Translations under genes and position numbers: made by a program
Notes under the pieces: generated by a model
What the model was told of the DNA's origin: nothing
What the model saw: only the letters and a program-made list of their open reading frames with translations
The model's database searches: none
DNA from: Diplocarpon mali
Lineage: Eukaryota; Ascomycota; Leotiomycetes; Helotiales; Drepanopezizaceae
Assembly: GCA_024741835.1 (NCBI GenBank)
Contig: JAENRP010000514.1
Location: 1 to 22,466 of the forward strand
Direction of reading: 5' to 3'
DNA: 22,466 bases
Part shown: one piece after another, positions 58-22,067 of the stretch
Numbering within the stretch: the stretch's first letter is position 1
How the letters are laid out: each line of letters begins with the position of its first letter

Positions 58-86
58 ATAACCTATAGGCTAGGCTTATAAGTCAA
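58..86. repeat. Dispersed 29-nt palindrome, copy in X (left)
   Basis: Degenerate copy with core AGGCTAGGCT and right arm ending AGTCAA. It is the mirror of the copy at 14402-14430 and is read in the common phase on the minus strand. Confidence 0.8.
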
Positions 87-243
87 CTTCTTTACTACTA
101 GTATTCTAAGTATTTAAGGCATTTCTAAAGATAGTAAATCAAACTCGTTTAAGTCTGATAATTAGTAATCGCAATAGTTAGCTATTTGAGTTCTAAGTAT
201 TATAGGTACCTCCAGCTTAGGAATATCCTCCTTACGTAGTACT

Positions 244-272
244 TCCACCTATAGGCCAGGCCTATAAGTCAA
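244..272. repeat. Dispersed 29-nt palindrome, copy in X (left)
   Basis: The core AGGCCAGGCCT is a perfect palindrome around one base, and the right arm ends AAGTCAATTC. It is the mirror of 14216-14244 and is read in the common phase on the minus strand. Confidence 0.85.
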
Positions 273-1899
273 TTCAAGTTCACTTATTAATTCTACCGCT
301 ATTAGTAGTAACTTTGAAATAGTAGGTATAATAAATTCCTATCTTTCTATTTTATTATTAAAGTAGTTTATAGTATACTTAATTAAATATATCATCTTAT
401 CTTTTATAATAAGTAAACTATATTAAGACTATTATAAGCTAAGGGTATTTAAAATGGTTTGATCTAAAAGTGCTAAATTATTATACTATAATAGAATATC
501 TTTTATTATCTAAATGGCTAAGTGTATAATAGTACTTAAGAAACCTATAAATTTTCTACCTTACGTACTATTTCCCTATAGCTTTTTTATACCCTTTTAA
601 ATAGTGAAATAATTTAATACTTATATAGCCTTTGCTATTAATTAGTATATCTTAAAAATTTTACTAAGCCTTTGCAAAGCGTTATTAATAGTGATATCAG
701 TTATAAAGTATATTTAAAAAAGTGTACTATAAGTGCTACTTATAAATTGCAATAATCTTTTTATATACTCATTTTTCTTATTTCGATTCTTTTAAAATAG
801 ATCGATTGAATTAATATACCTTTGATATTCTTATAGAAACTTTTCATAATCGATTCCTTTTATCTTAAGCTTATTCTTAAGAAAATCATCAAAGCCTAAA
901 AATCCTTCTTCAACTATAGAGATTCTATAGTTTAATACTTTAATAGATAAGTTTAGGAATACCTATTGTTCTATCTTACCTAATGTTCTATAAGTGCTTA
1001 CCATATCTTCTAATAATCTTAGTAACTTGCCCTCTTATAAAAAGCCATCTTTTAATATTAGCTTATTACTAGTAGTATTTATTAACTTACTGCCTAAGGT
1101 AATAACTAATATATTTTTCTTAAGTATAGTTCTTTTACTTAAGTTTGGTAGTACTATAGTAAAGTATTTAATAGAGATAGGATGATAGAATATATAAAGG
1201 CTTATTTAAGAAAGATTAATAAGATAGTAAGCTTATACTAAGAAAGAATTGATAATAGAAGATAGTAGTAGTAGTATTGCTAATACTAATGCTAGGATTT
1301 GGTAAGGTTATAAAAAGGTAAAAAAAAGTATAATTATAATATAAGAAGAGGTTTATTTATAAAGATAGGAATCGCATTAGTGCGCAAAGGAAAAGTGGGT
1401 ATAAAGAGGCCGAAAGTAGGAATAAAAGTAGGGTATAATATATATAAGGACCTATAATTAGTAAATGATAATTATCAAAGGTAAGGATAATATTTTAAAA
1501 GTAAGCGTTAGAAAGTTGTATATAAAGGAAATAATCAAAGGATGGATTATATAAAGAATAAAGTAGAGTAAAGAATATATATAAAATAGAATAATAAATA
1601 GAGAATAAATAGGTACTAATATATAAGAAGTAGATAATCTTAAAAAAAGATCTAGCTTAAATTCGTAAGTTCTTTAAATGGTTTTCTTTAAAGGTAATAG
1701 GCTAGATTCTTTAGATTGCTTGCCTTAATTGTTAGTTCTATTATCACTTCGGAGTCTTCTTCTTTTGCATTAGTTCTTACCTTTCGGCGATTTCTCTAAT
1801 TCTAATACCTTTATTAAAGGAACCTCTATTTATACCCTTAGGTTTGGTAGCCGAAGTTCATTTAAACTATTTTATAGGCTAAAGCTAGCTAAGTCTAAC

Positions 1900-1928
1900 C
1901 TTACTCATAGGCTAGGCTCGCGAGTCAG
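1900..1928. repeat. Dispersed 29-nt palindrome, copy in ORF2
   Basis: The right arm GGCTCGCGAGTCAG is well preserved. On the minus strand it reads LTREPSL-stop-VR in frame with ORF2. Confidence 0.85.
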
Positions 1929-2784
1929 TCTTGGCGTTTTTAAGCTTAAGGGTAAAAATAAGGAATTAGTTCTTAAATCAGGGTCTAATACTATTCTAGC
2001 GTCTTAGTTTATCTCCTTTTCGAATTTTCTTATAATAATGCCTTTATTAATTAGTGCATTAAGCTCTTAGATAGCATTTACTTTATTGCATTATCCTTAA
2101 GACTTAAGTCTATAAAGAAGCGACTTAGTATTTATAACGTTTATCTAAGCTTTAATAAAGGCATTAAAGAGCTTTTAATTATATTTTATAAGGTGAATTT
2201 TCAATTCGTCTTTATTAAGAAGAAATAACTCCTATACTTCGATTATAATTAATAGATCTATTTAAGACTATCGACTAATAATAGCTTTAAAAAGGCTACT
2301 ATAGTTCTTAAGATAAAAAGCTGCCTTAAAAGGTGCAGCAGTTCTACTTATATTAATCTATTAAGGTACTAAGGGTTACTTTAAAGTAAAGATTAAAAAG
2401 ATAAGATTAGAGATTTAAGTCTTATTTTCTAAAGTATTCTTATTGCAAATAACTATATAATTATTATAAAAGGCTATAAAACTACCAGTTTTATAAAAAT
2501 TATTTGAAAGCATCTTAAGAAGATATCCCTATTTTATTATTACTATAATTAGATTGCTATTATTAGTAATAGGTCGCAAGATCTCCTTTTGCTTTAATTT
2601 TATAATCATTTAAGCTAGCTGAGATTTTAAACTAAGTGCTTAAGAAGTCTATCGACTTATCTTCTTTATAAATAGAGTAAGTTTTATATTTAATTAAGAG
2701 CCGACCTACCTATTAAGGCTTTTAAAAGCTAGCCCTTATCTAATTAATAGGATTTGATAATCTAAGACTTGCTTTCTAATAAAA

Positions 2785-2813
2785 TTGACTCGCAGGCCAA
2801 GACCGCAAGTAAT
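2785..2813. repeat. Dispersed 29-nt palindrome, copy in ORF2
   Basis: The left arm TTGACTCGCAGGCC is intact. The minus-strand reading ITCGLGLRVN is in frame with ORF2. Confidence 0.9.
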
Positions 2814-4170
2814 AATCGGATTTTCTTTATTAGCAATACTTGCATCTCTCTTTATTAAAATGACTTAATTATAAAGACTAAGACCAATTAATTAAGGAGA
2901 TTCGGGGTAGGCTATAAGCTAATAGGCTCCTCCACTTTTTACTATTATAGCTAAAAGGTAGAGTCTATAATGTATCTGAAGGACTTATTAAATAAGATTA
3001 AATATTATATTATAAAGAAAATAAGAAGGTATAAAGGTCGCGTTATCTATAGGGCGGAAGTGATAAAGGTATATCTCTACTTCTTATCTTATAATAAAGA
3101 GGAATGTACTTATAAAAGTACTATTATTAGTAGTAAAATTGTCGATTAGGAAGCGGCATCTAAAGGGTTTAAGCATTATAATTGACCCTTCTTCCTCTAT
3201 TTCCTTTTACTATTTATTACTTAATAATATCGATAAGAAGGAATTATTCCATTTAATTGGCTTTAATGCTTTTAAGGCTTTAGGATCAGCCTTGAATTTT
3301 ATAGCACTTAGAGATGCCTTTATCATTAATAGGTTAGATTTGCGTATCTTTAAAGAGATAAAGAATTAATTATTAAAGTAGATTAGAAAAAGATCAATAT
3401 CTTCTATTATATAAAGAAGTTCGAAGTATTTAATAGTTTTATTAATATTAAATCCTTTATAATTAAGACTATAGTAAACTAAAAAAGAGTAAATATAAAG
3501 GTCGCAAAGTCTTCTTCCTTCGATTCTTATATTAAAAAGATACTATCGAAAGCGAGTTTTTATTATAAAGGACACTTGAATATTATATCATTCTTTAAGC
3601 TTAAGGTTAAGAATAACCGATTAAAGCATATTGCTATAATTACAAATATCCTAATTAATAGATTCCTCTTCGCATTCTCTTTCTTATAAGATAAAATAGT
3701 TTTGCTTAGCATCTAAGAGACTAGGTTCTTAACTTCTATAATTATTAAAGAATTGAATAATATCCGCAGGGGCGAATTTATCTAAGGTAAGCTATTAAAT
3801 CTATCTAATAGCTCTTTTAGTTATTTTTAAAGTAATAAGAATAGGGTCTTTCCTTATATTATCATTTTTAAAGCGGTTATATATAAATATAAAGAAGTTA
3901 AAAAATAGCTCTTTTAAGTTATTAAGGAAGGAGTCTAAATAGGCGCGCAATCCTTTAGTTTCAAATTGCAAATTAGCTAAAGTAGCTATCGAACGATCTA
4001 TCCTTTTTAAAGGTTAAGTTAAAATAGGTTGTTTAGCTAAAGGAAAGTCCTTTAAAGATTCCGAAAATTCCAAAGAGACTATGCTAAGCGTTTAAGCAGT
4101 TTGTTTAATAGCTGTTTTTAAAATCATTTTAGTAAAAGGTAAATTAGGTCTAGTTTTAAAATTCTTATTT

Positions 4171-4199
4171 CTAACTCTTAATCTAGGACTATAAGTTAA
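4171..4199. repeat. Dispersed 29-nt palindrome, copy in ORF2
   Basis: Degenerate copy. The minus-strand reading LTYSPRLRVR is in frame with ORF2 and has no stop. Confidence 0.75.
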
Positions 4200-5153
4200 A
4201 TTATATAATTTAGCACTTATTATATCTTTAAGTTAAGAAGCGAATTTCAAGGTAGGCTTAATTATAAATAATCAATTCCCTTCTTTATTATTAAAGAAAT
4301 CTTATTTAAACCCTATTATAAGAGTCCAGTTCTCTTTTAAAATAAGCAAACTATAAGCAAAAGCGTAGAGCTTTAGTATATTAATAATAGTACTATTAAG
4401 TAAGGTAATATTTATAGTTTAATTTGATCTTTTTATAGCCTTATTAGCTATTATAAGTATTACATTAGATAGGCCTATAAATCTGCGACTGCGAATTCGA
4501 TTGCCTTAGAATTTTGCTACTCCTTTTTAAATAATAAAGAAATTAAGAATCTAAATAGCTTTAGTAGTAGGATTGTTTTCCTTAAGAATTTTTAATAATA
4601 CTTATCTTCTATTATTAGAATCAATATTTGTTAAAAAGCGCAAATGAAATAGGAGTCCTCTCTTATTAGTAGCTAAATTATCCAGTTATCGAATAGATTC
4701 TTCTCTTTTATCTTAGTCTATTTTAAAAGTATTAGCCAAGGTTATATATTAATCTGCGTTAGCTAAGAATTCCTCTTTAGAGATTCCCTTTAATCTTAAT
4801 TCTTTAGTTAGGAAGTTGTCAAATCAGAGAATTCTAAGAACTACTTAAGTTGAAAGGTTATTAATAGCATTCGCGTAAGCTAAAAGGAGTTTTTATTACT
4901 CTATATCTCTTAAGGCTGCGTAGGTCGATTTAAAGTTCTCTAATAATATAATAGCTCTACTATCTTAAAAGAAGTTTATAACTAGTATTTATTTATCCTC
5001 TATTATAGTAAGCAAAACCATTTATAAGTTCTTTAAAGGCATATTACTTATAAAAGATGGGAAGTATAAATAAGAGAGTTTAATAGGATATAAGAATTAA
5101 AAGGGCATATAAGCTGTAATAGGTTTACTATATATATATTAAGGAGATTGGAC

Positions 5154-5169
5154 TTTTTTTTTTTTTTTT
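5154..5169 (-). other. Homopolymer (A16 on the minus strand) between gypsy pol and ORF2
   Basis: On the minus strand sixteen A residues directly follow the AT-rich sequence AATAATAAAT, downstream of gypsy pol and upstream of the ORF2 ATG. It could be a retroposed poly(A) tail, but simple slippage is equally possible. The sequence from 5043 to about 5290 holds no other recognisable feature. Confidence 0.5.
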
Positions 5170-5444
5170 ATTTATTATTTAAGGAAAGTAATAGAAATGC
5201 TATAATTAAAGGCTAATATTAAGAATATAAAATAAGTTAAAGTAGGCAAGAATTTAAAGTGATCTTAAAAGATCTATATCTTAAATAATAAAGGAGGCGA
5301 CCTTGCTAAAAATGTAAAAATAAGGATTAAAGGAAAGTAGGACAATTGATAGGCTAGGAAATTGTTTAGTATTCCTATTTACATTCATTAGATATTTTAA
5401 AAATAATAACTTAAGGTTGCAATTAATTAAATATTTTAATATTC

Positions 5445-5473
5445 TTCACTTATAGGACTAGCTTATAAGTTAA
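5445..5473. repeat. Dispersed 29-nt palindrome, copy in gypsy integrase tail
   Basis: Degenerate copy. The minus-strand reading LTYKLVL-stop-VK is in frame with Pol, after the acidic C-terminal segment. Confidence 0.75.
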
Positions 5474-6879
5474 GTTGGAAAAATCTTAGTCTTTATTTAA
5501 AGGTTTAAAATTGCTTATATTACCGTCGGTTCCTATAGAAGATTCGGAGGTTATATCAATTTCTGATTTATCTTTTAAAGGGAATAAGGTCTAATTGTAT
5601 TAATAAAAGCACTTTAATTAATTAGCTATAAAGGTTCTTTTAATATCGATTCTATTAAGTTCTTAAAGAGAATAGTATCCCTTTTCTTTTTACTTAAACT
5701 TAATCTTAAATAGACTAAGCTATTAATAGTTAAGTTTAATATCTACTAATATATTAATACTTCTTATAATATTATAAACTAAGATAAGATTATCTTTTCA
5801 AATAGGGTATATTTTAAGTACTTTAAAAGCAGCCTATGCTTCCTTAGCTTTTTCCTAATATCGTTTCTTTTATAAAATAATTTCTTCTATATTTATATCT
5901 TAGAGCTTAAGTTATTAATATCTTATTATAAGTAAATCGGAATAGTTTTAAATTTGACTATAGTCGAATAATCTTTAAATAGACTATTAGGATTTAAGTA
6001 GGAGCTATGCCTCTCTACTATAGATAAGGAAAAATAGTATAACTCCAATCGGTTTATAAATTATTATTTAATAAGTAAAGAGTATTCTATAAAAGTGTTT
6101 TATCTAATTCTTAAATCCTTTATAAGTAACTTTAAATAGCCTATTAAAAATGTTGCAATATCCTTACTCTACTACTTTATTAGCTTTCGAGTTATACGCT
6201 AAGATTTAAACCTATTTAATACTATATTTTTATAAAAAAGCTTTAACTACTCCTTTATTTTTAAGGCTTCTATTAATAGTTAGTCTACTAAAAAGTCTAT
6301 AATAATAGATTACGTCTTTTTAAAGGAACTTTATAATAGATTTAGAGTTAGTAGATTTTAAAGGTCGTCCTTTAAGCCATCCTAATAGGTCTTCCTTTAT
6401 TAGAATAAAATATATAATCCTATTTTTGATTATTAGTACTTATATAATATTAAGACTGACTTTATAGAAAAGGCCTAATAGCTAGGTTAGGAATAAAGGA
6501 TTCTCTTCCTAATTAGGTTTTCATTTCTAATAAGGGATACAACTTTTTATAAAAGCTTTATAGTCTTTAAAAGAACCCTTTTAAAAGAATTTTCTTAAGA
6601 GTTAGTAGTAAGTAGACTTAGCTCCTTAATAGCCAGTCTCCTTATAAATATCTTAAATAGCCTTAGCTTATAATTTATTATCATTTAAATAAAGCTATAT
6701 AGGAAATAAGTTATTGCTTCTTTTAAATAATCGTCTTCCTTATATTAGATAAATCAAAGCTTTAGCTTTGAATTTCTAAAAATCCTTAAGAGTAATTGTC
6801 TTTAGTTATTTAAGTATAATTAAAAATTTCGCAATTTCTTTAAAGTTACTTAAGTAATTAGGTGATAAAATTCTCTTAT

Positions 6880-6908
6880 TTAACTTATAGGCTAGGCTCG
6901 CAAGTCAA
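6880..6908. repeat. Dispersed 29-nt palindrome, copy in gypsy RNase H-integrase linker (other phase)
   Basis: The right arm GGCTCGCAAGTCAA is well preserved. The Pol frame reads it one base out of the common phase (TGA CTT GCG AGC CTA GCC TAT), which puts a TGA in frame. It lies between the end of RNase H and the start of integrase. Confidence 0.85.
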
Positions 6909-8846
6909 GTCCCTTTAAGGTAGTATATTGATAGATAATTAACTTTGTTCTTTACTTACTTATTAATATCTATTTTATCTTCTTTAATTAAATTAAAAGG
7001 GTAGGGACGAGTTCTTCTTAAAAGGCTATTAGTAGTAGTATTTTTCATTCTTAGAATATATTTGACTTTAAAGTCCATTAGTCTTATTTAAGCAATCCAT
7101 TTTATTAGCAAGGCTCTTAGTAGGTCGCTTATAGCTCTATTCAATTATTCTATTAGCACTTTAATATTAGTTTTAAGGATAAAGTAAGTGCTATAAAGGT
7201 CGCTTCTTATCTTTTTCATTACTTTTAAAGTACTTCTATATTTCTATTTAATAATATTATACTTTATTTCTATTAAATTCTAAAGACTACTTTCAAAGTA
7301 AGCTAGATATCTTTTCTATTAGCTATTAGCTTATTAAAAGATAGCACCCTATTTAATTAAGCTTATATCAACTATTAGTATAATTAGCCTAGCGTTAGCT
7401 CTATAGTCTATTTTAATTAGATATAGCGCTTTAAGTAACGCTTACTTTAATTGTTTTATAGCCTCTATTTAAGGTTCCTCTTATTGAAACTTAGCCCCTT
7501 TTTAAAATAAGGCGTAAATAAGTACTGCCTTTTTAGCAAAATCCTTAATTTAAATGCGATAGTATACTATAATGCTAATAAACGGATAGGCTTTTACTAT
7601 ATTATTATACCTCTTCTATTTATTGATTTTAAGTACTTTAGCCCTTTAAGGACTTTAGCTATTAGAATTAGTAATAAAACTAATAATTTCTATTAATAGA
7701 AGATAGTATTATAACTTCGGACTAACTATTGCTTTTATCCTTTTGAATTATATAAGTACCTAGTTTAGGTTCTAAATGTATTTTATTATAAATTATTATA
7801 TATTAAGGAGAACTTCTTTATAATTGTAGAATGATCTTAATCCTTTTACTCTTATATTATCTATATAAAAGAGCGTAATATTAAGTATATAATCTACTAG
7901 TATCTTTTAGATTATTTAAATAAATTGAGCGATTGAATTTATAGCCCCTTAAGGTAATCTTATTATCTGAAGTAGCTTAAGAGGGATTTGAATTGCTATT
8001 ATATCTCTTGATTTAATATTAAAAATAAATTAATTATATCTAAAGAAGAAGTTAATAAAAGAGCTGCAGGTTAATCCTACGAATTTATTTAAGAACTTAT
8101 CTATATTCAAAGGAACGTTAATATCCTTAATAATTACTCGGTTTATCTTTACTACTACTATTATTAGTCTATAAGTTCCCTTCTCTTTCTTAGCAATTAA
8201 GAATCATTTATTTCTATAAGGGCTATTATAGAACTTAAGAATACTTTGCTTTAGCCTATCCTTTAATATTTTAATTACCTTTTCTTAAAGAGCTTTAAGG
8301 ACTTTAAATGTTTTCTCTTATTAAGCTTTATAGGGTATTGTCTTAATCTTAATATAAGGTATAACCTCTTTTCGAATCTGGCTAAGTTCTATCTAATTAA
8401 AAGCTAAGGCGTCCTTTCGATTTATTAAGGTTTTATAAAGTAGTTCGCATTCTTACTTTATTAAGTCTTCTTTAATTTTCAATATATTAAAACGTTCTTT
8501 TATTAGCTAATATCTAATAGGTTTATTAGAAAATCTGCTTATAATAAACTTATCGAATTTGCTACTTAGCTTTAAAGGTTGAAGCTTCTTATTTTATTTA
8601 AATTAATTATCTAATCCTTTAGGCTTTAAGCTATTAGAGATTCCCTAATCTATTAGTTGTACTTTATCAGCCTTGCTTTTATATATAGTTCAAATATTAG
8701 CTAGTATTATACTTTTCTATTTCTTTCCTTTTTTATTAAGTCTTATAAAACGGTCCGAATTTTCCTTTTTAAAAATAAATAAAAGATTTTCTAAGTTATT
8801 AATTTAAAGTGCGTAAATGGAAATATTATTAGTAATTTTATTATTT

Positions 8847-8875
8847 TTCATTTATAGGTCTAGCTTATAAGTGGT
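8847..8875. repeat. Dispersed 29-nt palindrome, copy in gypsy protease-RT linker
   Basis: Degenerate copy. The minus-strand reading TTYKLDL-stop-MK is in the common phase and in the Pol frame. Confidence 0.7.
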
Positions 8876-9008: not shown

Positions 9009-9037
9009 TTAACTCTTAAGCTAAGACCGCGAGTTAA
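9009..9037. repeat. Dispersed 29-nt palindrome, copy in gypsy protease-RT linker
   Basis: The right arm GACCGCGAGTTAA is preserved. The minus-strand reading LTRGLSLRVK is in the Pol frame and has no stop. Confidence 0.85.
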
Positions 9038-10924
9038 ATTGCTATTATTTAAAATCGGCTAACTTACCTTTCTTTTATTATAACTTCTCGCTAGGTACCT
9101 TCCTTTATTAGCATTAAGCTTAGCCTTTATACTAGCTAATCGTTTCCTAAAACCTTATTTTAAAATTCGGCTATATCTCTTATAATAACCATTTATCCTT
9201 TTAAAGATCGATCTATATTTTAAAAACTAGCTTTTATAAGACTATCTTTAAGATAGTTAAATATTAGCTAAGATTCTAAAATAAAGGGCATTCTTAAAAG
9301 AATATTATTTAAACAATTCTCTATTATTAAAAAGTTAGTATAATTAATAATTCCTTTAACTTTAACCTTTACGTTTTTCACCTATCTATTAAAATTATAT
9401 TTCAATCTAAAGATAGTCGAATAAATAAAGAGTCAATTACTAATAATTATTAATTAAGCTATTTCTATTACTTTTCTAATTATTATATTAACTTTTAAAC
9501 TATAATCGATTAAAGCCTTTGCTTTAACTGATTCTTCTATTAAATAAATAATAATAGGACTTTTTATTACAACTATTAAATAATTTCAATTAATATTCTA
9601 AGATATTAAAGCTATTACTATAATATTATAATACCTTTAGGTTCTTTTGTCTTTTATAATTTAAAGACATTTGATTAAAGCTAAGTGCTTTTCAGATTTC
9701 TTTTATATTATAATTTCCATTTCCTTATTATTATTCAAATCTTTAAAAGCAATTAGAATATACTTTCTTAATACTTTATTAAACTGTTTAATTAAACTAA
9801 ATAGGTCTTTAAATATAAGGTTAATTTGCTAAGCTATAATATTCTCTATAGCTTTCTCTATTACAATTGAACTAGCGTATTTATTAACGAATTTTTCCTA
9901 TTTTAATATCTATCTCTTTCGCTTAAGGTTAAGGGTCTATATAATAACTTTAACTTCTTAATCTTTAAGCTTAAAGCTATCTTCGTTTATTATATCTTTA
10001 ATCAATTCGTCTGCTATATCGGCTTTATCCTTATCTACTACAGTTTTAGATTATTAAGTATCTTTTAGCGTTTAGACTTTATATTAAGATTCCTAAGTTA
10101 TACGCATTGATTTCTGGACTTTAGCTAGTTTTATTAGTATTAAAGGAGTGGTAGATCTAAAAGGACGCTAAGTATTCTAAGGGTTTTTAAATATAGAAGT
10201 AGCATTAATATTAACAAATATATTATTATTAACCTACTTTAAAATAGAGATTCCTTTAACTTTAGTAGCAGTCTAGTTCGAAGTTTAATTAGTAAGTACT
10301 CCCTTAAGTAGATTATTAGCTAAACCTATATATATATAAGTTAAGACCTTAGAGTTGATTTCGATAATGCGCTTCTATTTAGCCAAATCCTTTTCCTACT
10401 TTATATTATATATTATTATTTAAATAGTCTATAGCTATAAACTATTCTAGTATTTTTTAATAAGGATAGCATCTAGCCTAGGATCTCTAATGCAAAGCAT
10501 CCTATACTTATTAATATATATAACCCTAGTATTAATAAAACGATAGAAAAGAGGACAATCGTTATAATACTTATATAGAGCGTAGTTAGGTTCTTTATTA
10601 TTATAAAAGTTGCAAGTTAGTTATCTTCTATTGCCGTTTCCTTAGTACCTTATAGTATTAATATTAGCAAAGTATTAGTTAGGATCAATTCCTTCTTCTT
10701 TAGCTAGCTATTACGTTCTTATATTAGCTAGTTATTCCGAATGATAAGAAGCAGAAGTCTGGTAATAGGAACTATTAGGTTAGCTTATAGTAGCCGAGTT
10801 TTACCTATTACTAAATTAGAGAATATAGTATTCTTCTTATAAGAGATTATTAATCTTAATTTCTAAACTTTAAATTTAAATTTCTGCAAATTAAGTCTTA
10901 AGTTCCTTAATTCTAAGGTTAGAT

Positions 10925-10953
10925 CTTACTCTTAGGTTAGGACTATAAGTAAA
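10925..10953. repeat. Dispersed 29-nt palindrome, copy in gypsy Gag before the zinc knuckle
   Basis: Degenerate copy. The minus-strand reading FTYSPNLRVR is in the Gag frame and in the common phase. Confidence 0.75.
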
Positions 10954-11933: not shown

Positions 11934-11962
11934 CTTACTTATAAGCTAAGCTTAAGAGTAGA
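11934..11962. repeat. Dispersed 29-nt palindrome, copy in gypsy Gag N-terminal part (other phase)
   Basis: Degenerate copy (TTACTTATAAGC, then GCTTAAGAGTAGA). In the Gag frame it is read one base out of the common phase, the same offset as the copy at 6880-6908. An unnoticed frameshift nearby is possible, because the next frame is also fairly open here. Confidence 0.65.
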
Positions 11963-12345
11963 ATTCCGGATTCTATTAAAAGTTTAATTTAAGTTTACTA
12001 AGAGATTTTAAATAAGTGCTAAATAGCTAATAAGAGCGTTGCAACTAATTGTAGTAAGATAAGGTTTACCTAATTAAAGACTAATTTCTAAGATAAGGTT
12101 TATATATAAGATTCTTCTTAGCCTTTAGGCCAATTCCTATTAGTCCTTAAAATAAAGGGGTCTTTAAAGACAATTCTAAGGCAGTTTTTAAAGTTCTATT
12201 AAGCCGAAGTGGCTAAATTATCAGATTCGGATTTTTAAAGATTCTAAAGAGGCACTTCTAATTAGAGTTTGCGCTTAATATTACTTAAGTACTTAAAACT
12301 ACTATTATTTAAGATTGCTATTATAGGGTTTATCAAACTTTTCAT

Positions 12346-12907
12346 ATTAGAAAGCCGAAAATTCCGAGAATCTTAAAGTTAAAGAGGAAAAAAAAAAAAA
12401 AAAAATAAGGGTTTTTTAAAGCAAAGCTAAAAAGGGAAAATCTAAGGTTATTGATAATTGCTAAATGAAAATCGATAGTTTTAAGTAATTAAGCGATTAA
12501 GGAAAGAGATATTAATAATTTTCAATACTAATCGAAGTGCTTAAAGGTAGTTTTTAAAGATGTTTTTCAAAAGGCCAGTCTTTTATTTATAAATTAAGAG
12601 ATTAATAAAGTTGTATAAGGACGGAAATCTCAAGAAATCGGTCCTTGCGTAAGTTACTAATATAAAATAGAAGGGAGATAATACAAAAATAGGCCTAAGG
12701 GAAGACCTAAAAACAAAAGGAAGAAGCACTATAAGCGGGCTCTTTTAAATAAGATATTAAGAATAAGTCCTAAGTATAAGGTATATTTAATACTTATAGT
12801 AACGCGCGCCTATCTCTATATATAAAAGATGGCCCTTTTATCCTCCTACTATCCTACGCCGATCATATAATATATATCATAAGACCTATCCATCTCAGGT
12901 CTCCATA
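12346..12907. other. Intergenic region between divergent gypsy Gag and element X
   Basis: No coding frame is convincing here. It holds an 18-nt A run (12388-12405, T18 on the minus strand) just upstream of the gypsy Gag ATG, and a plus-strand TATA-like box at 12816-12828. A gypsy 5' LTR and primer-binding site would be expected in this interval, but I could not identify either. The inverted-repeat homology with the left end of the window stops at about 12908, with weak similarity to about 12862. Confidence 0.5.
12816..12828 (+). promoter_or_regulatory. TATA-like box upstream of element X (right copy)
   Basis: CTATATATAAAAG lies in a locally GC-richer stretch, about 170 bases upstream of the X ATG and about 35-90 bases upstream of where homology between the two X copies begins. 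It is a plausible promoter element for X. In so AT-rich a sequence, chance cannot be excluded. Confidence 0.4.
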
Positions 12908-14215
12908 ATATATTCTTTACTCTACTTCATTCTTTATATAATCTATCCCTTGATTATTTCCTTTATATATAACTTTCTAACGCTTACCTTTGAAATGTCA
13001 TTCTTACCTTTGATAATTGTCATTTACTAATTATAGGTCCTTATATGCGTTATACCCCACTTTTGTTCCTACTTTCGGCCTCTTTATACCCACTTTTCCT
13101 TTGCGCACTAATGCGATTCCTATCTTTATAAATAAACCTCTTCCTATATTATAATTATACTTTTTTTTACCTTTCTATAACCTTACCAAATCCTAGTACT
13201 AGTATTAGTAATACTATTACTACTATCTTCTGTTATTAATTCTTTCTTAGTATAAGCTTACTATCTTATTAATCTTTCTTTAATAAGCCTTTACGTATTC
13301 TATTATCCTATTCCTATTAAATACTTTACTATAGTACTATTAAACTTAAGTAAGAGAATCATACTTAAGAAAAATATATCAATTATTGCCTTAGGTAGTA
13401 AATCAATAAATACTACTAGCAATAAGCTAATATTAGAAGGTGGCTTTTTATAAGAGGGCAAGTCACTAAGATTATTAGAAGATATAGTAAGCACTTATAA
13501 AATATTAGGTAAGATAGAATAATAGGTATTTTTAAACTCATCTATTAAAGTATTAAACTATAGAATCTCTATAGTTAAAGAAGGATTTTTAAGCTTTAAT
13601 GATTTTCTTAAAAATAAGCTTAAGATAAAAGGAATCGATTATAAAAAGTTTCTATAAGAATATTAAAGGTATACTAATTCAATCGATCTATTTTAAAAGA
13701 ATCGAAATAAGAAAAATAAGTATATAAAAAGATTATTGCAATTTATAGGTAGCACTTATAGTACACTTTTTCAAATATACTTTATAATTGACATTACTAC
13801 TAATAACGCCTTATAAGGGCTTGGCAAAATTTTTAAGATATACTAACTAATAGCGAAGGCCATATAGGTATTAAATCATTTCACTATTTAAAAGGGTATA
13901 AAAAAGCTATAGGGAAATAGTACGTAAAATAGAAAATTTATAGGTTTCTCAAGTACTATTATACACTTAGCCATTTAGATAATGAAAGATACTCTATTAT
14001 AGTATGATAATTTAGTACTCTTAAATCAAACTATTTTAAATACCCTTAACCTATAATAGTCTTAATATAGTTTACTTATTATAAAAGATAAAATAATATA
14101 TTTAACTAAGTATACTATAAACTACTTTAATAATAAAATAAAGAGATAGGAATTTATTATACCTACTATCTTAAAGTTACTACTAATAGTAGCAGAATCG
14201 ATAAGTGAACTTAAA

Positions 14216-14244
14216 TTGACTTATAGGCCTGGCCTATAGGTAGA
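14216..14244. repeat. Dispersed 29-nt palindrome, copy in X (right)
   Basis: Core AGGCCTGGCCT. It reads LTYRPGL-stop-VE in frame with X. Confidence 0.85.
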
Positions 14245-14401
14245 AGTATTATATAAGGAGGATATCCTTAAGCCAGAGGTGCCTATAATACCTAGAACTT
14301 AAATAGCTAACTATTGCAATTACTAATTATCAGACTTAAATGAGTTTAATTTACCATCCTTAAAGATGCCTTAAATACCTAGAATACTAATAGCAAAGAA
14401 G

Positions 14402-14430
14402 TTGACTTATAAGCCTAGCCTATAAGTCAT
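14402..14430. repeat. Dispersed 29-nt palindrome, copy in X (right)
   Basis: TTGACTTATAAGCC followed by a degenerate right arm ending AGTCAT. It reads LTYKPSL-stop-VI in frame with X. Confidence 0.85.
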
Positions 14431-14826
14431 TATATATAATAATATAGACTTTAAAGATGATCTGATAGATAAAGAGAATAACCCTATTACTAATATAATA
14501 GAAATTTTTAATAATACTAAAAAGGATATATCTAATATTATATAGACCTTTTCTAAAGACTTATAAAAATTTATTCTGAAATTCTATAAGTTAATAATAA
14601 AGCGTTTGAAAAAGGAAGGTTAAGGAGAAGTTTTACTAATATAAGAAGTAATAGTAAGAGCTATTAAATAAATTATAAAGCTATAATAAGACGAATTTTC
14701 TATAGATAATATTATACATTTCTTTATTAAATATAAGAAATCGAAGGGCGCCTACTATATCTTTAAATAAAAGCTAGAAAATAGTATAATAATCATCTTT
14801 ATAAAGTGCTATAAAGTTTCCTTTAA

Positions 14827-14831
14827 TATTA
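14827..14831. repeat. Target-site duplication TATTA (left)
   Basis: The five bases before the copia 5' LTR are TATTA, identical to the five bases after the 3' LTR (20412-20416). Five-base duplications are normal for Ty1/copia integrases. Confidence 0.92.
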
Positions 14832-15063
14832 TGTTGCAGGTATGCCCGTCACATGTTTGTCACATGATCAACACATGATATGTCATATGACTTGCCACAT
14901 GACTTAGCGGCTTCGCTAAGAAGCCCGCTTACCTTAAGTAGCTCGTAGTTAGAGAGCTCTTATGAATTAAGATACTCAACATCGTCGTTTGCACCTTATA
15001 CTTCTTCGTGCCCTCTCTTTTAGTTTACTATCAAGTTCACTATCTAAGAACCTCCTTGCTATA
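14832..15063 (+). repeat. Copia 5' LTR (232 bp)
   Basis: Begins TGTTGCAGG and ends GCTATA, where the final TA stands for the CA still present in the 3' LTR. It has the same length as 20180-20411 and differs at 9 sites, all transitions, 7 of them CA/TA or TG/TA. It keeps many CpA and TpG sites, unlike the interior. It contains a row of five CACATG/CATATG boxes (14850-14901) and a hairpin-prone GCGGCTTC...GAAGCCCGC (about 14906-14927). Confidence 0.95.
14850..14901. promoter_or_regulatory. Row of five E-box-like hexamers in the copia LTR
   Basis: CACATG at 14850, 14861, 14872 and 14896, and CATATG at 14884, give steps of 11, 11, 12 and 12 bases, close to one helical turn. CANNTG hexamers are the usual sites of basic helix-loop-helix factors, so this may be an upstream activating region in U3. 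In the 3' LTR the first box has become CACATA and the second CATATG. Confidence 0.55.
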
Positions 15064-15083
15064 GGTTATAAGCCCCGCATGCC
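15064..15083 (+). other. Copia primer-binding site, complementary to initiator tRNA-Met anticodon arm
   Basis: GGTTATAAGCCC starts at the first base after the 5' LTR. It matches the complement of the eukaryotic initiator tRNA-Met anticodon stem-loop (GGGCTCATAACC) except for one G to A change in a TpG, a RIP-type change. Priming from an internal fragment of this tRNA is known for Drosophila copia and yeast Ty5, so half-tRNA priming is the likely mode here. Confidence 0.75.
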
Positions 15084-15391
15084 TATAAATAGCATTCGAC
15101 AAATTCCATCGATTAGAGTCTCCTTTACAAACGAAAAGGCTGATCGACATTTTGAGTTTTACTTAACTAATAACGTATAATAAGCGTTATCTTAATAATA
15201 AAATAGTAGCTACTCCCCTTCTAGAGCGCTACGCAATAATCTAAGCTTATATAAGATTCGTTACCGTAGCTGAATCATTAGGACTAATAGCTGAGATTAC
15301 TAGCTTAATTGCTAAAAGTACTCTACTGCCTGAATCACCTATTTTTAAAGGGACTAATATATAGTACCTTAAACTCGAATTCAACAGTTTA

Positions 15392-15418
15392 TCTCCTCCT
15401 CCTCCTCCTTCTCCTCCT
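15392..15418 (+). repeat. CTCCTCC microsatellite encoding poly-Pro in copia Gag
   Basis: A run of CCT triplets with one TCT gives PPPPPSPP in the Gag frame. It is one of the few C-rich stretches of the interior. It contains no CpA or TpG, so it offers no preferred RIP targets. Confidence 0.85.
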
Positions 15419-16510
15419 TTCGATAAATCTATATATAAATATATAAATAAGATATTATCGTTGTCTTTAGCTGCCCTTAGCCTCCCTAAGTCTCAAAAGC
15501 TTAAAGGCGCAGAGGACTATAGCTAGTAGAGGAATAAGGTTTTAAACCTTGCAAAGTCAAACGCTTTAACTATATATCTCTATATAAAAGCTAGAATATA
15601 TGCTCTACTTAAGGTTAACTTATAGGACCGTTCTATTACAAATAAGGAAAGGGATAATTAGGTTAGATAGGAAGCTAAGGAATCTTAGATAAAGCTTACT
15701 ATTATACTTAATTGTAAACTAGGACTACTAGCTTATATAGAAGGCGACAAATCTGCCTTAGATATATAGGAAGCTCTTTAAAAATAGTACAAAGGATCTA
15801 GAATAGTACTTGAATATAATACTATATAGACCTATGTTACTATTAAATATAACGACTTTAATTCACTTAAAGCTTATATTATCGCCTTTAGGCTTTTAAT
15901 TACTAAATTGGAAGCTCTCGACTCTGCCCCTCCCTCTTACTAGCACCCTATTATATTTATTGCTAGCTGTTCTAATAGATAGCCTATTTAGGCAGATCGA
16001 TAACGTTCTAACCTTCGCTTAGCTATAGCAGCTGAACGAAAATCAGAGATCACGCTTAAAGCTCTTATTAAAGATATTACTAATAAAGCTCGAGCCTTAT
16101 AGAGTTTAAAAATAAATAGAACCGTCTTATATAGTAATAAATCGGCTGGCAAGCCGCATTCCTCTAACTATAAGAAGTCAAAAAACAAAGGAGGTTTTAA
16201 AGATTTAAAGAAGAGCACCTCTAGGAATACTACCACCTCCTCCCTTAACTCCCCCTATCCTTATTGCAAGCAACCAAAGCTATACTATAAGGTAGAAGAT
16301 TGCTTTGCAATTAATAAATCGAAAAGAGAGGCTTAAGAGAAGGATTTAAGGAAGAAGTACGTATTCTATTACCTTAAAGGCAAGGACGATAAGTCCTCGC
16401 TATTATTACCAAAAGGCAAGAAGCCTTTTAAGAAGATTCAAAAGGAAGACGAAGAGTCAGATAATAATCTCTTTAGGCATACTATGCTATTACTAACCCT
16501 AGGGCCAATT

Positions 16511-16539
16511 CTCACTCGCGAGCCGGGCCTAGGAGTCAA
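16511..16539. repeat. Dispersed 29-nt palindrome, copy in copia Gag-protease linker
   Basis: CTCACTCGCGAGCC and its partner arm ending AGGAGTCAA are well preserved. It reads LTREPGLGVN in frame, between the zinc knuckle and the protease. Confidence 0.92.
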
Positions 16540-16576
16540 TTCCTCACTAAGAGGCGATTCCTCTTTAGGACCGATT

Positions 16577-16605
16577 TCCACTCGCGGGCCGGGACCAGGA
16601 GTCAG
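16577..16605. repeat. Dispersed 29-nt palindrome, second copy in copia Gag-protease linker
   Basis: Starts 66 bases (22 codons) after the previous copy. It reads STRGPGPGVS in frame. Confidence 0.92.
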
Positions 16606-17993
16606 TTCTTCTACCTACTTCTTATCAAAATTGAGGAATCGTTAGCTATACGACACAGGTGCTAGTAAGCATATCTCTAATGATCTCTCTAAGTTCACTT
16701 CCTATACTGCTTAAGATAATCTACCCTTTTTAAGTATAGTTAATAGATCTATTCAACCTCTTAGTATTGGCACTTACAAAGTTAATGCATTTAAATCCAA
16801 TGGAAAGGTATATGTTCTTAAGTTAATTAATACTCTTTATATACCTTAATTACCTATCTGCCTATACTTAGGTAGTAAACTTAATAAAATCAAAGGCTTC
16901 TATCGAAATAGCAAGCTATTCCTATCTAATAAAAAGGAAATTTGCACTATCGATAATAATATATATATTAATAAGGAATAGCCTTCTACTAACTCCTCTA
17001 ATTATATAAGTGGATATGCTCTCCTAGCTGCAATTGAGAATGGACCTTTTGATATTAAGCTCTAGCACTATCGATTAGGCTACGCTAGCCTACAAATGGT
17101 TAGAAAGACCTAATCTGCTATTACTAATATATAGATTAAGGAAACAAAATCAAAGAAGATGCGAATTTGCACCCTTTGTGAAAAAGGCAGACCTCTCTGA
17201 TATATTAATAAACGTTTAGCTCGCCCTCGACTTACGAAAGCACTTGACAAGCTATATATCGATGTGGTTTATTTAAAGCCAACTGGCCTTAACGGCTATA
17301 AATACGCTTCTATCTTCACTTGCGCAACTATAATAGCTAGGTAAGGATGGACTTATATAAATAAATCTAATGCCTTTAAGGCAAATAAGAAGATAATCAG
17401 CCTCTTATAAACTTAATACAATTGTATAATCAAGCGGTAGAGAACTGATAGAGGCAAGGAGTACTCTCTTATATAGATGCGAATACTCGTAGAAAACCTT
17501 AGTATAATTTTAAAGGAATCTACTCTATATATACTAAAATAAGACAGCAGATTAAAACGATCAATTCGCATACTAATAGAAAAGTTGCAAATAGCTGTAA
17601 TTAACCAAAATATCCCCTCCTTTCTTTAGCCTTACCTCCTTCTTTCGGTAATATATATTACCAATCTTACTACCTTTAATATTCTTAGTAGCAAGACTCT
17701 ATATAAGGTCTTTTAGGATGATATTAAGCCTAATAAGCCTTATACTCCCTTAGTTAAGCATCTTTAAGTACTAGGCTATTGCATCTATATGCTAATTGAG
17801 AAAGAAAGGCGAACTTAGAGTAATAAACTCGCTTTGAGAGCAGAGGTAGGTACTCTTATCGGATTTGATAGTAGAAGTATCTATCAAATCTATATGCTAT
17901 TATAAATAGGTAATAAGATTATTCGATCATCTTACGTTCGATTTGATAAAGATGGCCTGATTATAGAGCTATACCTTAAGGAAAATTCCTCTT

Positions 17994-18012
17994 CTTAATT
18001 AAGGGGTGATTT
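17994..18012 (+). repeat. Internal copy of the copia end-of-ORF / purine-tract sequence
   Basis: CTTAATTAAGGGGTGATTT is identical to 19925-19943, where it spans the end of the polyprotein. Here it sits inside the polyprotein immediately before the first palindrome of the 18011-18132 array. Confidence 0.85.
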
Positions 18013-18039
18013 GACTCCCGGTCTGGGACCGCGAGTCAA
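18011..18039. repeat. Dispersed 29-nt palindrome, array unit 1 in copia integrase-RT linker
   Basis: TTGACTCCCGGTCT, G, GGACCGCGAGTCAA. It reads LTPGLGPRVN in frame. First of three units. Confidence 0.95.
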
Positions 18040-18055
18040 TTCTCACTCTTACGAT

Positions 18056-18084
18056 TTCACTCCTAGGCCGGGACCGCGAGTTAA
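18056..18084. repeat. Dispersed 29-nt palindrome, array unit 2
   Basis: Starts 45 bases (15 codons) after unit 1. It reads FTPRPGPRVN in frame. Confidence 0.93.
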
Positions 18085-18103
18085 TACTGACTCTTACGAT
18101 GAT

Positions 18104-18132
18104 TTCACTTCTGGGCTAGGACTAGGAGTCAA
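18104..18132. repeat. Dispersed 29-nt palindrome, array unit 3
   Basis: Starts 48 bases (16 codons) after unit 2. It reads FTSGLGLGVN in frame. The sequence between units is also shared (CTCTTACGA before units 2 and 3), so the array arose at least partly by tandem duplication. Confidence 0.93.
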
Positions 18133-19924
18133 TTCTAATTTAGGAAAAGTTGAGCTTCCAATTTTAAAAAAGAAAGGAAGACCTCCTAGTTTAAAGAATA
18201 AGGCTTACCCTTAGCCTTTTGAGAAGAGAGCTACTCGCTTAACTTATGCTTTTAGATTTAAAGCTAATAACTATAATAATAAGAAAGCCTATTTAGGCGC
18301 CTTCTATATAGCCTTACTCGACTCTCTATACTTAAATGACTTGAAAACAGTCGAATAAGCCCTCTCTTGCGCTAATGCCGATAAATGGCGATCTGCGATC
18401 AACTTTAAGTATAATTCCCTCGCTTATAAGAATATATAGGTGGTAGTGAAACGCTTAAAACTCTCTAAAGATGATAGAGTACTTGGATCGAGACTCGTCT
18501 TTAAAACTAAAAGAGACTAAAATAGGGAAATCTCCTAATAGAAGGTCAGATTCGTTATATAAGGCTATATACAATAATAAGATCGAGATTATAACTAGAC
18601 TTTTGCTAGAGTATGCAAATCTATAGTTTAGAAGATCGCAATCGCGCTTATAGCGCTATACGACTTTAAGCTAAATTAGTTCGATATTGAGATAGCTTTC
18701 CTTAATTCAGAAGCTGACTCTAATATCTATATTAAGTTACCTCTTAGATATACTTAAGATAAGGTTATTCTTTTACCTTAAGACTACTATCTTAAGCTTC
18801 TTAAGGCCTTATATAGCTTAAAGCAATCTCTATAACTATAGTAAGAAAAGCTATAGTCCGAGCTATAAAAGCTCGATTTTCAACCTTTTGATATTGATAA
18901 TTATATATATATTAACCGCGCCTCTCGGATTCTTATCGTTACTTATATCAACGACTTCCTTATAATAGCTAAGAAGGGTGATATATATAATAAGTTCAAA
19001 AGAGATCTTCGCAACCTTTTCGAAATCATAGGTGGCGAACTAGCTAAATACTTCTTAAGAGTACGTATAGTCAAAGATCGATAAAATAGAACGATCTTAC
19101 TTTATTAAGACGCCTATATTAATAAGGTTCTTAAACGTTTTCATATGACTAATTGCAAAAGCGTACTAACGCCTTTTACTAGTAGCTATAAAGTTCATAT
19201 AGTCAAATTTAAAGGCCAAGCTACTCCATAGGAAGTGAAGCTATATTAAGAGATCTATAGTTCTCTATAGTACCTTGCGCACTATATGCGTTAAGATATA
19301 CTATACTACTGCTCTATTCTTAGCAAATTCCTTACTAACCCTTCGCTATAATATATAGTAGCTTTAAAACGAGTTTTATAGTACTTGCAAGGAACGCGAT
19401 TCTATTATACTACTTTTAGAAGTAAAACAACTGACCTAGAGCTTTAGAAATTGCATAGCTACTGCGATTCTAATTAAGCAGGTGACAGAGGAGGTAGAGC
19501 CTTCTATTCTAGGGCTATCTTCTTCTTTAATAATAGCGTAATTACCGCCTCCTTTAAGCGATAAACTATTATCGCTCTCTTATCTACAGAGGCAAAGTAC
19601 GTCGCTATATGCAAATTCGCATAAGAGGCCTCTTAGATACGCTAAGTACTTAAGGAAATAGGCTATGCCGGCGACGACGCTACTAAAGTCGAGATGATTT
19701 GCGATAATTAAAGAGCCCTTTATCTTATTAAAAACCCCGAATATTACTAAAGAATAAAGCATATCAATATTAAGTTCTATTATATTTAGTAAGAGCTTCG
19801 GAAAGGCTATTTGGACCTTTAGTATACTAATACTAAAGACAACGCCACTGACGGCCTTACCAAGAGCTTAAATAGCTCTAACTACGCCGCCTTTATTAAA
19901 TTGTTAAATATAAAGGTTCTGTAC

Positions 19925-20030
19925 CTTAATTAAGGGGTGATTTTTTTTTGTACTTCTATTAAGGGGTGATTTTTTTTTTACTCCCGGGCCAGGCCTGCGA
20001 GTTGATTTTGACTTACTAAGGGGTGGATTT
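19925..20030 (+). repeat. Three AAGGGGTG(G)ATTT repeats in the copia 3' region
   Basis: AAGGGGTGATTT at 19932 and 19961 and AAGGGGTGGATTT at 20018, the first two followed by T runs. They resemble the purine tract (AGAGGGGTG, 20171-20179) that precedes the 3' LTR. They may be decayed duplications of that region. The palindrome at 19977-20005 lies between the second and third. Confidence 0.75.
19977..20005. repeat. Dispersed 29-nt palindrome, copy in copia 3' untranslated region
   Basis: ACTCCCGGGCCAGGCCTGCGAGT forms a near-perfect stem. It is the only copy in the window outside a reading frame, between the polyprotein stop and the 3' LTR. Confidence 0.93.
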
Positions 20031-20170
20031 CCTACTTCAGAGTAGAGCGCGCTAGCGAACTCTACTCTATTTCCAATATCTACAGGTTGATTTTTCATAC
20101 GAAACTGTAAAATACAATAAAAGTTATAACGTTATATATATTGCTAGCGAGTACCTTTAAAGGTCTCCCC

Positions 20171-20179
20171 AGAGGGGTG
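20171..20179 (+). other. Copia polypurine tract
   Basis: AGAGGGGTG abuts the 3' LTR (TGTTGC...), the expected position of the plus-strand primer. One T interrupts the purines, as is common in copia elements. Confidence 0.75.
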
Positions 20180-20411
20180 TGTTGCAGGTATGCCCGTCAC
20201 ATATTTGTCATATGATCAACACATGATATGTCATATGACTTGCCACATGACTTAGCGGCTTCGCTAAGAAGCCCGCTTACCTTAAGTAGCTCGTAGTTAG
20301 AGAGCTCTCATGAATTAAGACACTCAACATCGTCGTTTGCACCTCATACTTCTTCGTGCCCTCTCTTCTAATTTACTATCAAGTTCACTATCTGAGAACC
20401 TCCTTGCTACA
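20180..20411 (+). repeat. Copia 3' LTR (232 bp)
   Basis: TGTTGC...GCTACA, the same length as the 5' LTR and 223 of 232 positions identical by eye. It retains the terminal CA that the 5' LTR has lost. Confidence 0.95.
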
Positions 20412-20416
20412 TATTA
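20412..20416. repeat. Target-site duplication TATTA (right)
   Basis: Pairs with 14827-14831. Removing one copy plus the element restores continuity of the X frame. Confidence 0.92.
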
Positions 20417-21216
20417 AGATAATACTTTAATATAGCAATAGATTCAAGATTATAATAATACTAAAGATAAAGATACAATTAAGTAAATTTATAATAAGGA
20501 TATTTAAGGACTTTAGTTTCGAAAAATTTTATATTCTATATAAATAATAATATATATAATATTATAAGCTAATAATAGTATCTTTGACTAATAAGCAAGT
20601 TTCCTTTAATATATATAAATTTTATATTATACCTAACTTAACTCTATTCTTATTATACCTTAGAAACTATACAATTATAGCTACTAGCAATAGAAGGGCT
20701 ATCTAAATTAAGAAAGATATATTATTAGGTTTCTCTAAGTTTAAAGTAATACCTAAGGCCTTTAAATTATTTTATAATATCGCTTAAACCCTCGCCTAAT
20801 ATAAGACTATACTAACTAAAGATACTCTAATATCGCTTTATATTAAAGGTTTCTTAAATATACTTAAGTTATTAAGCTATGCCTTTTTAAGTACTATACG
20901 CACGCATAGTGCTAGTAATTATAAAAAGAATTCCTTTTTAATATTAGTATAAGAAGAGCTATAAATGTATTAATATCATTTCTAAACCTTTAATAAAAAG
21001 CCTTCCCCTCCTTTCACCTTTTTCTATAATATAACTTATAACTTAATACAGCAGACCTTAAGGATATATTATAGTCTATATCTTAATACTCTATTAACTT
21101 ATTATAATTCTTTATATAAGTTGGTAATATATCTTAAGCCTATACAATTTATAATTATTAACTACTATTTACAAATTATTTCTACTAAGATTAATGCTAA
21201 TTTAAGATTCGTAAAG

Positions 21217-21245
21217 TTGACTCCTAAGCCTAGCTTATAAGTCAA
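21217..21245. repeat. Dispersed 29-nt palindrome, copy in X (right)
   Basis: TTGACTCCTAAGCC with right arm ending AAGTCAATTC. It reads LTPKPSL-stop-VN in frame. Confidence 0.88.
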
Positions 21246-22038
21246 TTCTCCTAATAGTAGAACTATTAACTATTATATAATTCCTACTGCTAAATAATCG
21301 ACTAAGGAATTTATTATATAGGAAAAGTCTTATAAGTCATTTATACTTATACCCTATTGCTTTAAAAACTCTTAATAGATCTCGCTAAACTTAATATAAA
21401 GCGCAGTTTAATAAAAAGAATTAAATACTAAAGATAAAATAATTCTAAAGGAGTATATCTTTAATAAGACTATTCTATTCTTTATATTTATAAGATAAGG
21501 CACTTTTATTAACCTAGATTCCGATAGAAAGCTTAAGAAGGGTAGTTTTCTTACTATTAGTAATAATTATATAAAAGTTATTAATAATAATACGCTTAAG
21601 AATAGAGCTAATTTAAAAGATTTCTTTATTAACTCTATTAATATAAAGAAGCCTTAATTATTAAGATAAGGCGTAGTCTATGAATCTTCTGCAAGATTCT
21701 AAGCAATAATCAGAATAATAAAAGGTAGTCTATTATTAAAAGCCCTTATAAGTAGAAGATTATAGAATAATCTATTAATAGTAATAACTATAAAGGATTT
21801 ATTTGCAAAAGACGTATCTTAGCTATTAGTATATCTAAAGAAGTATAAATAAGAACTTTTTAAAGATTTTACTAATACTTAAAAGCTAGTTTAATAACTA
21901 AAGCTATAGTTATATAGCAATAAGTCTTAAATAAAGACTAAAGATATAAAAGATAATATTAAGACTAATAATATAATTAATAAAACGATTCTATTTAAGA
22001 AGTATAGCACTAAGAAACCCTATATAAAAATACTTAAT

Positions 22039-22067
22039 ATAACTCCTAGGCCTAGCCTATAACTTGA
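22039..22067. repeat. Dispersed 29-nt palindrome, copy in X (right)
   Basis: AACTCCTAGGCC with a decayed right arm. It reads ITPRPSL-stop-LD in frame. Confidence 0.75.

What the first reader, a model, noticed from the sequence alone, without database searches (positions are those of the whole stretch)
58..22067. A dispersed 29-nt palindrome shared by unrelated retroelements: candidate undescribed mini-mobile element
I find 21 copies of one short palindrome (arm near TTGACTCGCRGGCC, one central base, reverse-complement arm) in gypsy gag-pro and pol, copia, X and ORF2. These frames share no other recognisable sequence, so common descent of the hosts does not explain the copies. They are GC-rich and crisp in the copia and RIP-decayed in the older elements, as if they entered at different times. 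The best analogy is the Rickettsia palindromic elements, which insert into coding genes. I know of no named fungal equivalent.
Basis: partly seen in the sequence, partly recalled or inferred. Interest (0 to 1): 0.88.

Follow-up and report, generated by a model that had tools for sequence, protein, structure and literature searches.

The report
Tiny palindrome colonising fungal retrotransposons
A 29-letter mirror-image DNA word occurs in thousands of places in one plant-associated fungus, repeatedly inside unrelated jumping genes and often without breaking their protein code, like a miniature parasite of parasites.

Summary
The assembly holds at least 3,103 places, reversed-pattern control 0. 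At score 19 or more, 0 of 15 GC-rich 10-kb samples have a copy; 3 of 5 AT-rich ones do. Copies fall into 18 flank clusters. Across 22 sites conservation drops at the palindrome's edges, and no lone arm was seen in the loci held. Carriers include two copia and two gypsy families. Annotated Diplocarpon coronariae polyproteins encode it in frame (TPGPGPRV or TREPGPGV), between domains or near an N-terminus; 56 other relatives of one of them lack the peptide. One gypsy reads it in another frame and one window copy is untranslated, so the DNA word rather than the peptide seems to spread. Best reading: a Rickettsia-palindromic-element-like micro-element living in retrotransposons, multiplied by its carriers and by tandem duplication. 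How it moves between elements is inferred; no within-family empty site or target duplication was found.

The parts
58..86 (.). palindrome, site in the element that is repeated inverted at 12908-14487
244..272 (.). palindrome, same element
1900..1928 (.). palindrome, gypsy-A family site (11 members in its flank cluster)
2785..2813 (.). palindrome, gypsy-A site
4171..4199 (.). palindrome, gypsy-A site
5445..5473 (.). palindrome, gypsy-A site
6880..6908 (-). palindrome between RNase H and integrase zinc-binding remnants of gypsy-A; palindrome starts at codon position 3 of that frame
8847..8875 (-). weaker palindrome (score 17.7) upstream of the RNase H remnant, phase 0 of that frame
9009..9037 (-). 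palindrome upstream of the RNase H remnant, phase 0 of that frame
10925..10953 (.). palindrome, also in L036; part of the recurrent gypsy-A layout
11934..11962 (.). palindrome, also in L040
14216..14244 (.). palindrome, inverted counterpart of 244
14402..14430 (.). palindrome, inverted counterpart of 58
16511..16539 (+). copia-A gag-protease linker palindrome, phase 0 (LTREPGLGVN)
16577..16605 (+). copia-A gag-protease linker palindrome, phase 0 (STRGPGPGVS)
18011..18039 (+). copia-A integrase-RT linker, tandem unit 1, phase 0
18056..18084 (+). copia-A integrase-RT linker, tandem unit 2 (spacing 45)
18104..18132 (+). copia-A integrase-RT linker, tandem unit 3 (spacing 48)
19977..20005 (+). copia-A palindrome after the ORF remnant and before the 3' LTR (non-coding)
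21217..21245 (.). palindrome, unclassified context
22039..22067 (.). palindrome, unclassified context
14832..15068 (+). copia-A 5' LTR
   Evidence: 95% to the 3' copy
15485..19930 (+). copia-A polyprotein remnant (73% to P0001), many stops
20180..20416 (+). copia-A 3' LTR
6514..7468 (-). gypsy-A RNase H and integrase zinc-binding remnants (both below Pfam's curated cut-offs)

Best explanation
A discrete 29-bp (possibly 33-35 bp, with weak flanking A) palindromic micro-element has inserted many times into LTR retrotransposons of Diplocarpon. SHOWN: one unit with sharp edges, in 18 flank clusters and at least four carrier families. In annotated D. coronariae polyproteins it is encoded in frame between domains or near an N-terminus; elsewhere it is read in another frame or is untranslated; and tandem arrays vary in copy number between copies of one family. 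INFERRED: (1) the unit arrives as a hairpin-forming sequence during reverse transcription or repair of element cDNA, for example by RT strand transfer or hairpin priming, which would explain why it was met only in the AT-rich element compartment; (2) insertions that keep the frame in linkers survive, others are lost; (3) each carrier's own transposition then multiplies it, and slippage or unequal exchange makes tandem units of 39-90 nt. It works like a Rickettsia palindromic element whose 'genome' is the retrotransposon population.
For: 3,103 places, control 0. 0 of 15 GC-rich samples with a copy against 3 of 5 AT-rich, score 19 or more. On C1 the 20 listed copies sit in four clusters, none between 3.7 and 395.9 kb. 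18 flank clusters from 142 copies. Over 22 sites conservation drops at the palindrome edges. Of 143 strict arms in the loci held, 108 match the full pattern and the other 35 show a partner arm on reading, sometimes decayed, except one cut by a locus end. P0001, P0058, P0059 and P0060 carry it outside every Pfam hit (P0060 has only a zinc-knuckle hit). 56 of 57 copia relatives lack the peptide. Copia-B: 3-8 units per fetched piece, 56 of 56 in phase 0. Gypsy-A RNase H-integrase linker: phase 2 has the fewest stops of the three sense frames in 6 of 6 copies, with both domains in that frame. Exact patterns give 1 match in viral contigs and 2 in prokaryote contigs, GC-rich and chance-like.
Against: No family-internal empty site, no target duplication, no enzyme and no active jump. 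Weak similarity runs past the palindrome in three pairs of window sites: 5426/8828, 84% over 45 nt; 4150/8988, 72% over 53; 14399/21214, 71% over 68, and gypsy-B and copia-B share a few residues after it, so some copies may have moved with spacer or by recombination. One antisense frame at the phase-2 site has about as few stops (9-11). Contexts 58/244, 11934, 21217, 22039 and L056 are not assigned to a retroelement class; Pfam found nothing in 9901-14800 or L036 5001-9990. Host DNA was sampled only in 150 kb of GC-rich sequence. The loci used for the arm test were partly chosen because they hold palindromes.
Confidence: 0.65

Rival explanations
1. No mobile unit: the palindrome arose once in one retroelement and reached others by ordinary recombination or gene conversion between nested or co-expressed elements, then by tandem duplication.
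For: Gypsy-B and copia-B units share a little sequence after the palindrome (V[KD]SANS). The window copia has an LRGD-coding stretch in both its gag-PR and IN-RT linkers. Three pairs of window sites show weak similarity past the palindrome. The carriers share the same AT-rich compartment.
Against: Over 22 sites hardly any flank position beyond -3 carries information (at most 0.20 bits, at -14), and long recombination tracts would carry flanks. Seven sites of one gypsy family fall in seven separate flank clusters.
Confidence: 0.2
2. Selection on the peptide: TPGPGPRV is a portable linker, or a polyprotein processing site, copied between elements because it helps separate domains.
For: The copies found in annotated D. 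coronariae polyproteins lie outside Pfam hits, between domains (gag-PR, PR-IN, IN-RT, RNase H-IN, and by position PR-RT) or near the N-terminus. Where frame 0 is used the peptide is well kept.
Against: It is read in another frame in gypsy-A, lies after the copia ORF (19977), and occurs in arrays whose spacings are mostly not multiples of 3 (6 of 7 in L009, L035, L037 and L056). Copia relatives in Rhynchosporium manage without it.
Confidence: 0.09
3. A nucleic-acid signal (protein-binding dyad or RNA dimerisation/packaging hairpin) that several retroelements acquired because it helps them.
For: Dyad symmetry; three of four folded copies beat shuffles as RNA hairpins (z -2.25, -3.25, -4.40; the decayed 6880 copy does not, z 0.14); eight sites in one gypsy.
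Against: The arms are often mismatched (6-13 of 14 complementary), copy number and place vary, and other, decayed gypsies in the same genome show none at score 19 or more (L027; plus strand of L030). No Rfam match in the window.
Confidence: 0.05

Closest known systems
Rickettsia palindromic elements (RPE) and similar coding palindromes of Wolbachia and Methanocaldococcus
   Same: Short palindromic coding DNA, in-frame insertions at assorted, typically non-structured positions (described so in PMC2996958 section 9).
   Different: Here 29 bp instead of roughly 100-150 (recalled); a eukaryote; met only in the retroelement compartment so far; tandem arrays; no host-gene copy seen in the small sample.
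PARCEL (palindromic amphipathic repeat coding sequences, PMC2996958)
   Same: Palindromic coding units in tandem arrays, linked to mobile DNA.
   Different: PARCELs encode a conserved amphipathic domain with Trp, in membrane proteins and genes of unknown function; here a Pro/Gly-rich linker peptide in gag-pol.
MITEs / terminal-inverted-repeat remnants
   Same: Inverted arms, high copy number.
   Different: Only one base between the arms, no separated arms in the loci held, no target duplication seen.
GC clusters and double-hairpin elements of fungal mitochondrial DNA (recalled)
   Same: GC-rich hairpins dispersed in AT-rich DNA, at times within genes.
   Different: Nuclear, inside LTR retrotransposons, coding in frame.
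Ty1/copia and Ty3/gypsy retrotransposons
   Same: They are the carriers.
   Different: Copia relatives in Rhynchosporium and elsewhere lack the peptide; relatives of the gypsy carriers in other species could not be searched.

Membership tests
Rickettsia palindromic elements | palindromic unit with hairpin potential | tested here: met
   (three of four folded copies beat shuffles; the decayed one does not)
Rickettsia palindromic elements | in-frame insertion in coding genes at non-structured positions | tested here: met
   absence in copia relatives. 'Non-structured' judged only from lying outside Pfam hits
Rickettsia palindromic elements | dispersed in unrelated genes, housekeeping genes included | tested here: inconclusive
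   unrelated retroelements yes; no copy in 15 GC-rich 10-kb samples, but that is only 150 kb, and would miss single copies in host proteins
Rickettsia palindromic elements | length of roughly 100-150 nt (recalled) and sequence homology | tested here: not met
   unit is about 29 nt; an exact pattern finds 2 chance-like matches in the prokaryote contigs; RPE sequences themselves were not aligned
MITE | terminal inverted repeats around an internal region, arms able to stand apart | tested here: not met
   143 strict arms, none seen alone except one cut by a locus end (loci partly chosen for palindromes)
MITE | target-site duplication | tested here: inconclusive
   none apparent by eye at 31 printed copies; no empty site to compare
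PARCEL | amphipathic repeat domain with conserved Trp | tested here: not met
   encoded peptide is TPGPGPRV-like without Trp; PARCEL described in PMC2996958 section 9; its HMM was not run

The most novel reading that the evidence does not exclude
A hyperparasitic micro-element: a 29-bp palindrome that spreads in trans between unrelated LTR retrotransposons by way of their own reverse transcription, survives by coding a harmless linker peptide in whichever open frame it lands, and is a eukaryotic counterpart of the bacterial coding palindromes.
Probability: 0.4. Interest if true: 0.9.

Novelty: new variant of a known kind. Interest (0 to 1): 0.76.

Why it matters
How the bacterial coding palindromes move has, to my knowledge, not been settled. 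Here the same habit appears in a eukaryote with thousands of copies, a few well-defined carriers and annotated, apparently open carrier polyproteins in a sequenced species. Gains and losses become countable between strains, and the idea that reverse transcription is the vehicle becomes testable. It would also be a mobile sequence whose habitat is other mobile sequences, and a source of new linker peptides.

Tried and rejected
Rejected: chance; simple satellite (sites dispersed in separate flank clusters); TIRs of a larger transposon; known RNA family in the window (none at gathering score); peptide-only repeat (phase 2 and untranslated copies); prokaryotic or viral source (chance-like matches in contigs of GC 0.62-0.70). 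Led nowhere: Pfam scan of one frame of 1-4500, of the other window frames outside the copia and pol remnants and of L036 5001-9990; search for an empty site among gypsy-B linkers: three with a shorter open frame (L072-L074) lack a 30-nt stretch after the second palindrome but keep both units, as does L075. I therefore make no claim that it is absent from print. Of PMC2996958 I saw passages and section 9; of the other papers only listings and starts of abstracts.
Full report
WHAT IS THERE. The window is contig C514 of a 49.37-Mb, 676-contig assembly. The host is D. coronariae (Drepanopezizaceae, Helotiales) or a close relative: a gypsy copy in the assembly is 95-96% identical to the annotated D. 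coronariae protein P0060, and a decayed copia copy is 86% identical to P0001. The window is AT-rich with strong RIP-type dinucleotide bias (TpA/ApT 1.41, (CpA+TpG)/(ApC+GpT) 0.54, against 0.60 and 1.21 in L022, GC 0.58). Twenty to twenty-one copies of the palindrome are present.

WHERE IT IS IN THE GENOME. A strict pattern with up to 3 mismatches gives 920 forward and 883 reverse matches (many the same places) and none for the reversed pattern. The symmetrical GCG/CGC form alone has 79 places and the CC/GG form 15. A pattern that tolerates transitions finds 3,103 places, control 0. This is a lower bound: the pattern catches 12 of the 20 window copies. In twenty 10-kb samples chosen by position alone, 13 copies of score 19 or more lie in three of the five AT-rich samples (GC 0.42 or less) and none in the fifteen with GC of 0.47 or more; below that score, samples and reversed controls have similar numbers of chance hits. 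One search lists only 50 of the 3,103 places; read as being in contig order, they leave C2 and C5 empty and put all 20 C1 copies in four clusters.

CARRIERS. Copia-A: window 14832-20416, LTRs 95% alike; the annotated P0001 has two units between gag and the Pol_BBD domain (taken as protease) and three between integrase and RT. Copia-B: P0058 has an array of eight by eye (seven by the expression) between Pol_BBD and the integrase (placed by similarity to the solved integrase 7z0h, recalled as Ty1's). I fetched eight copia-B linkers, out of 57 listed matching pieces; they hold 7, 3, 8, 8, 6, 8, 8 and 8 units of score 16 or more within 491 bases, some arrays cut by the piece, all 56 in the same frame. 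Gypsy-A: window minus strand, RNase H and integrase zinc-binding remnants; eight palindromes. Gypsy-B: P0059/P0060, two annotated models of one element family, with units near the N-terminus, between the zinc knuckle and RT (P0060 601 and 616; protease not detected by Pfam), and between RNase H and integrase. Two expression hits at residue 63 (TPLPSIEV) were judged false and dropped. Other decayed gypsies in the same genome, L027 and the plus strand of L030, 29-50% alike to P0059, have no palindrome of score 19 or more in their span.

IT IS A UNIT. Clustering of 142 copies of score 19 or more by masked flanks gives 18 clusters (some loci overlap, so copies are not all distinct; the 8847 copy is below that score). 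Over 22 site representatives the information falls to near background outside the 29-mer, apart from an A preference at -2 (0.43 bits) and -3 (0.22) and a stray 0.20 at -14. The conservation inside is partly built in, since copies were picked by score, but the flanks were not scored. Against this, one search shows three pairs of window sites with weak similarity running past the palindrome in AT-rich DNA (45-68 nt, 71-84%). Of 143 strict arms found in about 298 kb (overlapping loci included, many of them chosen for palindromes), 108 match the full pattern; the other 35 show a partner arm on reading, sometimes decayed, except one cut by the end of a locus.

FRAME. In frame 0 the word reads LT[PR]xPGP[RG]V. 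All 37 non-duplicate spacings that I count in the coding linker arrays are multiples of 3; these are related by descent and are not 37 independent events. In arrays without an evident open frame (L009, L035, L037, L056) 6 of 7 spacings are not multiples of 3. At the gypsy-A RNase H-integrase linker the palindrome starts at codon position 3. That frame has the fewest stops of the three sense frames in 6 of 6 copies (4-11 against 17-26; one antisense frame has 9-11), and both neighbouring domains lie in it. The variant TCGACTC, which has no TGA there, is present in 3 of the 6. Sites 1900 and 4171 have similarly few stops on the antisense strand, so their coding strand is undecided. The copy at 19977 lies between the ORF end and the 3' LTR.

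ORIGIN. Of the 57 proteins that one search returned for copia-A, out of a database of about 5.8 billion (7,985 candidates scored), only P0001 has the peptide. The expression also hit five others (P0013, P0026, P0031, P0038, P0048) loosely, which I judged unrelated. A search with the linker alone, E up to 10, finds four proteins, all D. coronariae; it covers proteins of about 820-2600 aa and would miss single copies, so it does not show absence from host proteins. The nearest annotated relatives lacking it (Rhynchosporium, 44-45%) are empty at both linkers but too diverged to give an exact junction. The same search for the gypsy carriers failed.

DECAY. Those loci were found with a crisp pattern, so this shows possibility, not frequency.

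MECHANISM. The pattern asks for a mobile unit plus tolerance filtering. Confinement to the element compartment suggests entry during reverse transcription, but selection against insertion elsewhere, or an unseen nuclease, would look alike. I put 0.65 on an RPE-like mobile unit as stated (lowered by 0.01, and recombination raised by 0.02, after the pairs were taken into account) and about 0.4 on the specific trans-spreading, RT-borne version.

Noticed in passing
window 1-1580 and 12908-14487: Inverted 1580-bp pair, 92% alike, flanking 11.3 kb; L040 joins the 5200 side directly to the 12910 side, so copies are rearranged relative to each other.
   Followed up: partly
L070, L030 8912-8985: Copia-B and gypsy-B tandem units share a few residues after the palindrome (V[KD]SANS), hinting that at least one transfer carried spacer too.
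   Followed up: partly
L065 (C33:230732-231222): A copia-B copy with only 3 units in the fetched piece; the other seven have 6-8.
   Followed up: yes
L036 3-1768 and 8227-10000: Long direct repeats (83%), the first overlapping a decayed copia-like RT, each with a stretch open on both strands.
   Followed up: no
window 4171 region, L038 1522-1956 minus: A 145-aa open frame antisense to gypsy-A pol carries the palindrome in frame (LTPSLGLRVKS); both strands have few stops there.
   Followed up: partly
L072-L075: Gypsy-B copies differ by a 30-nt stretch just after the second palindrome that looks like the start of a third unit.
   Followed up: partly
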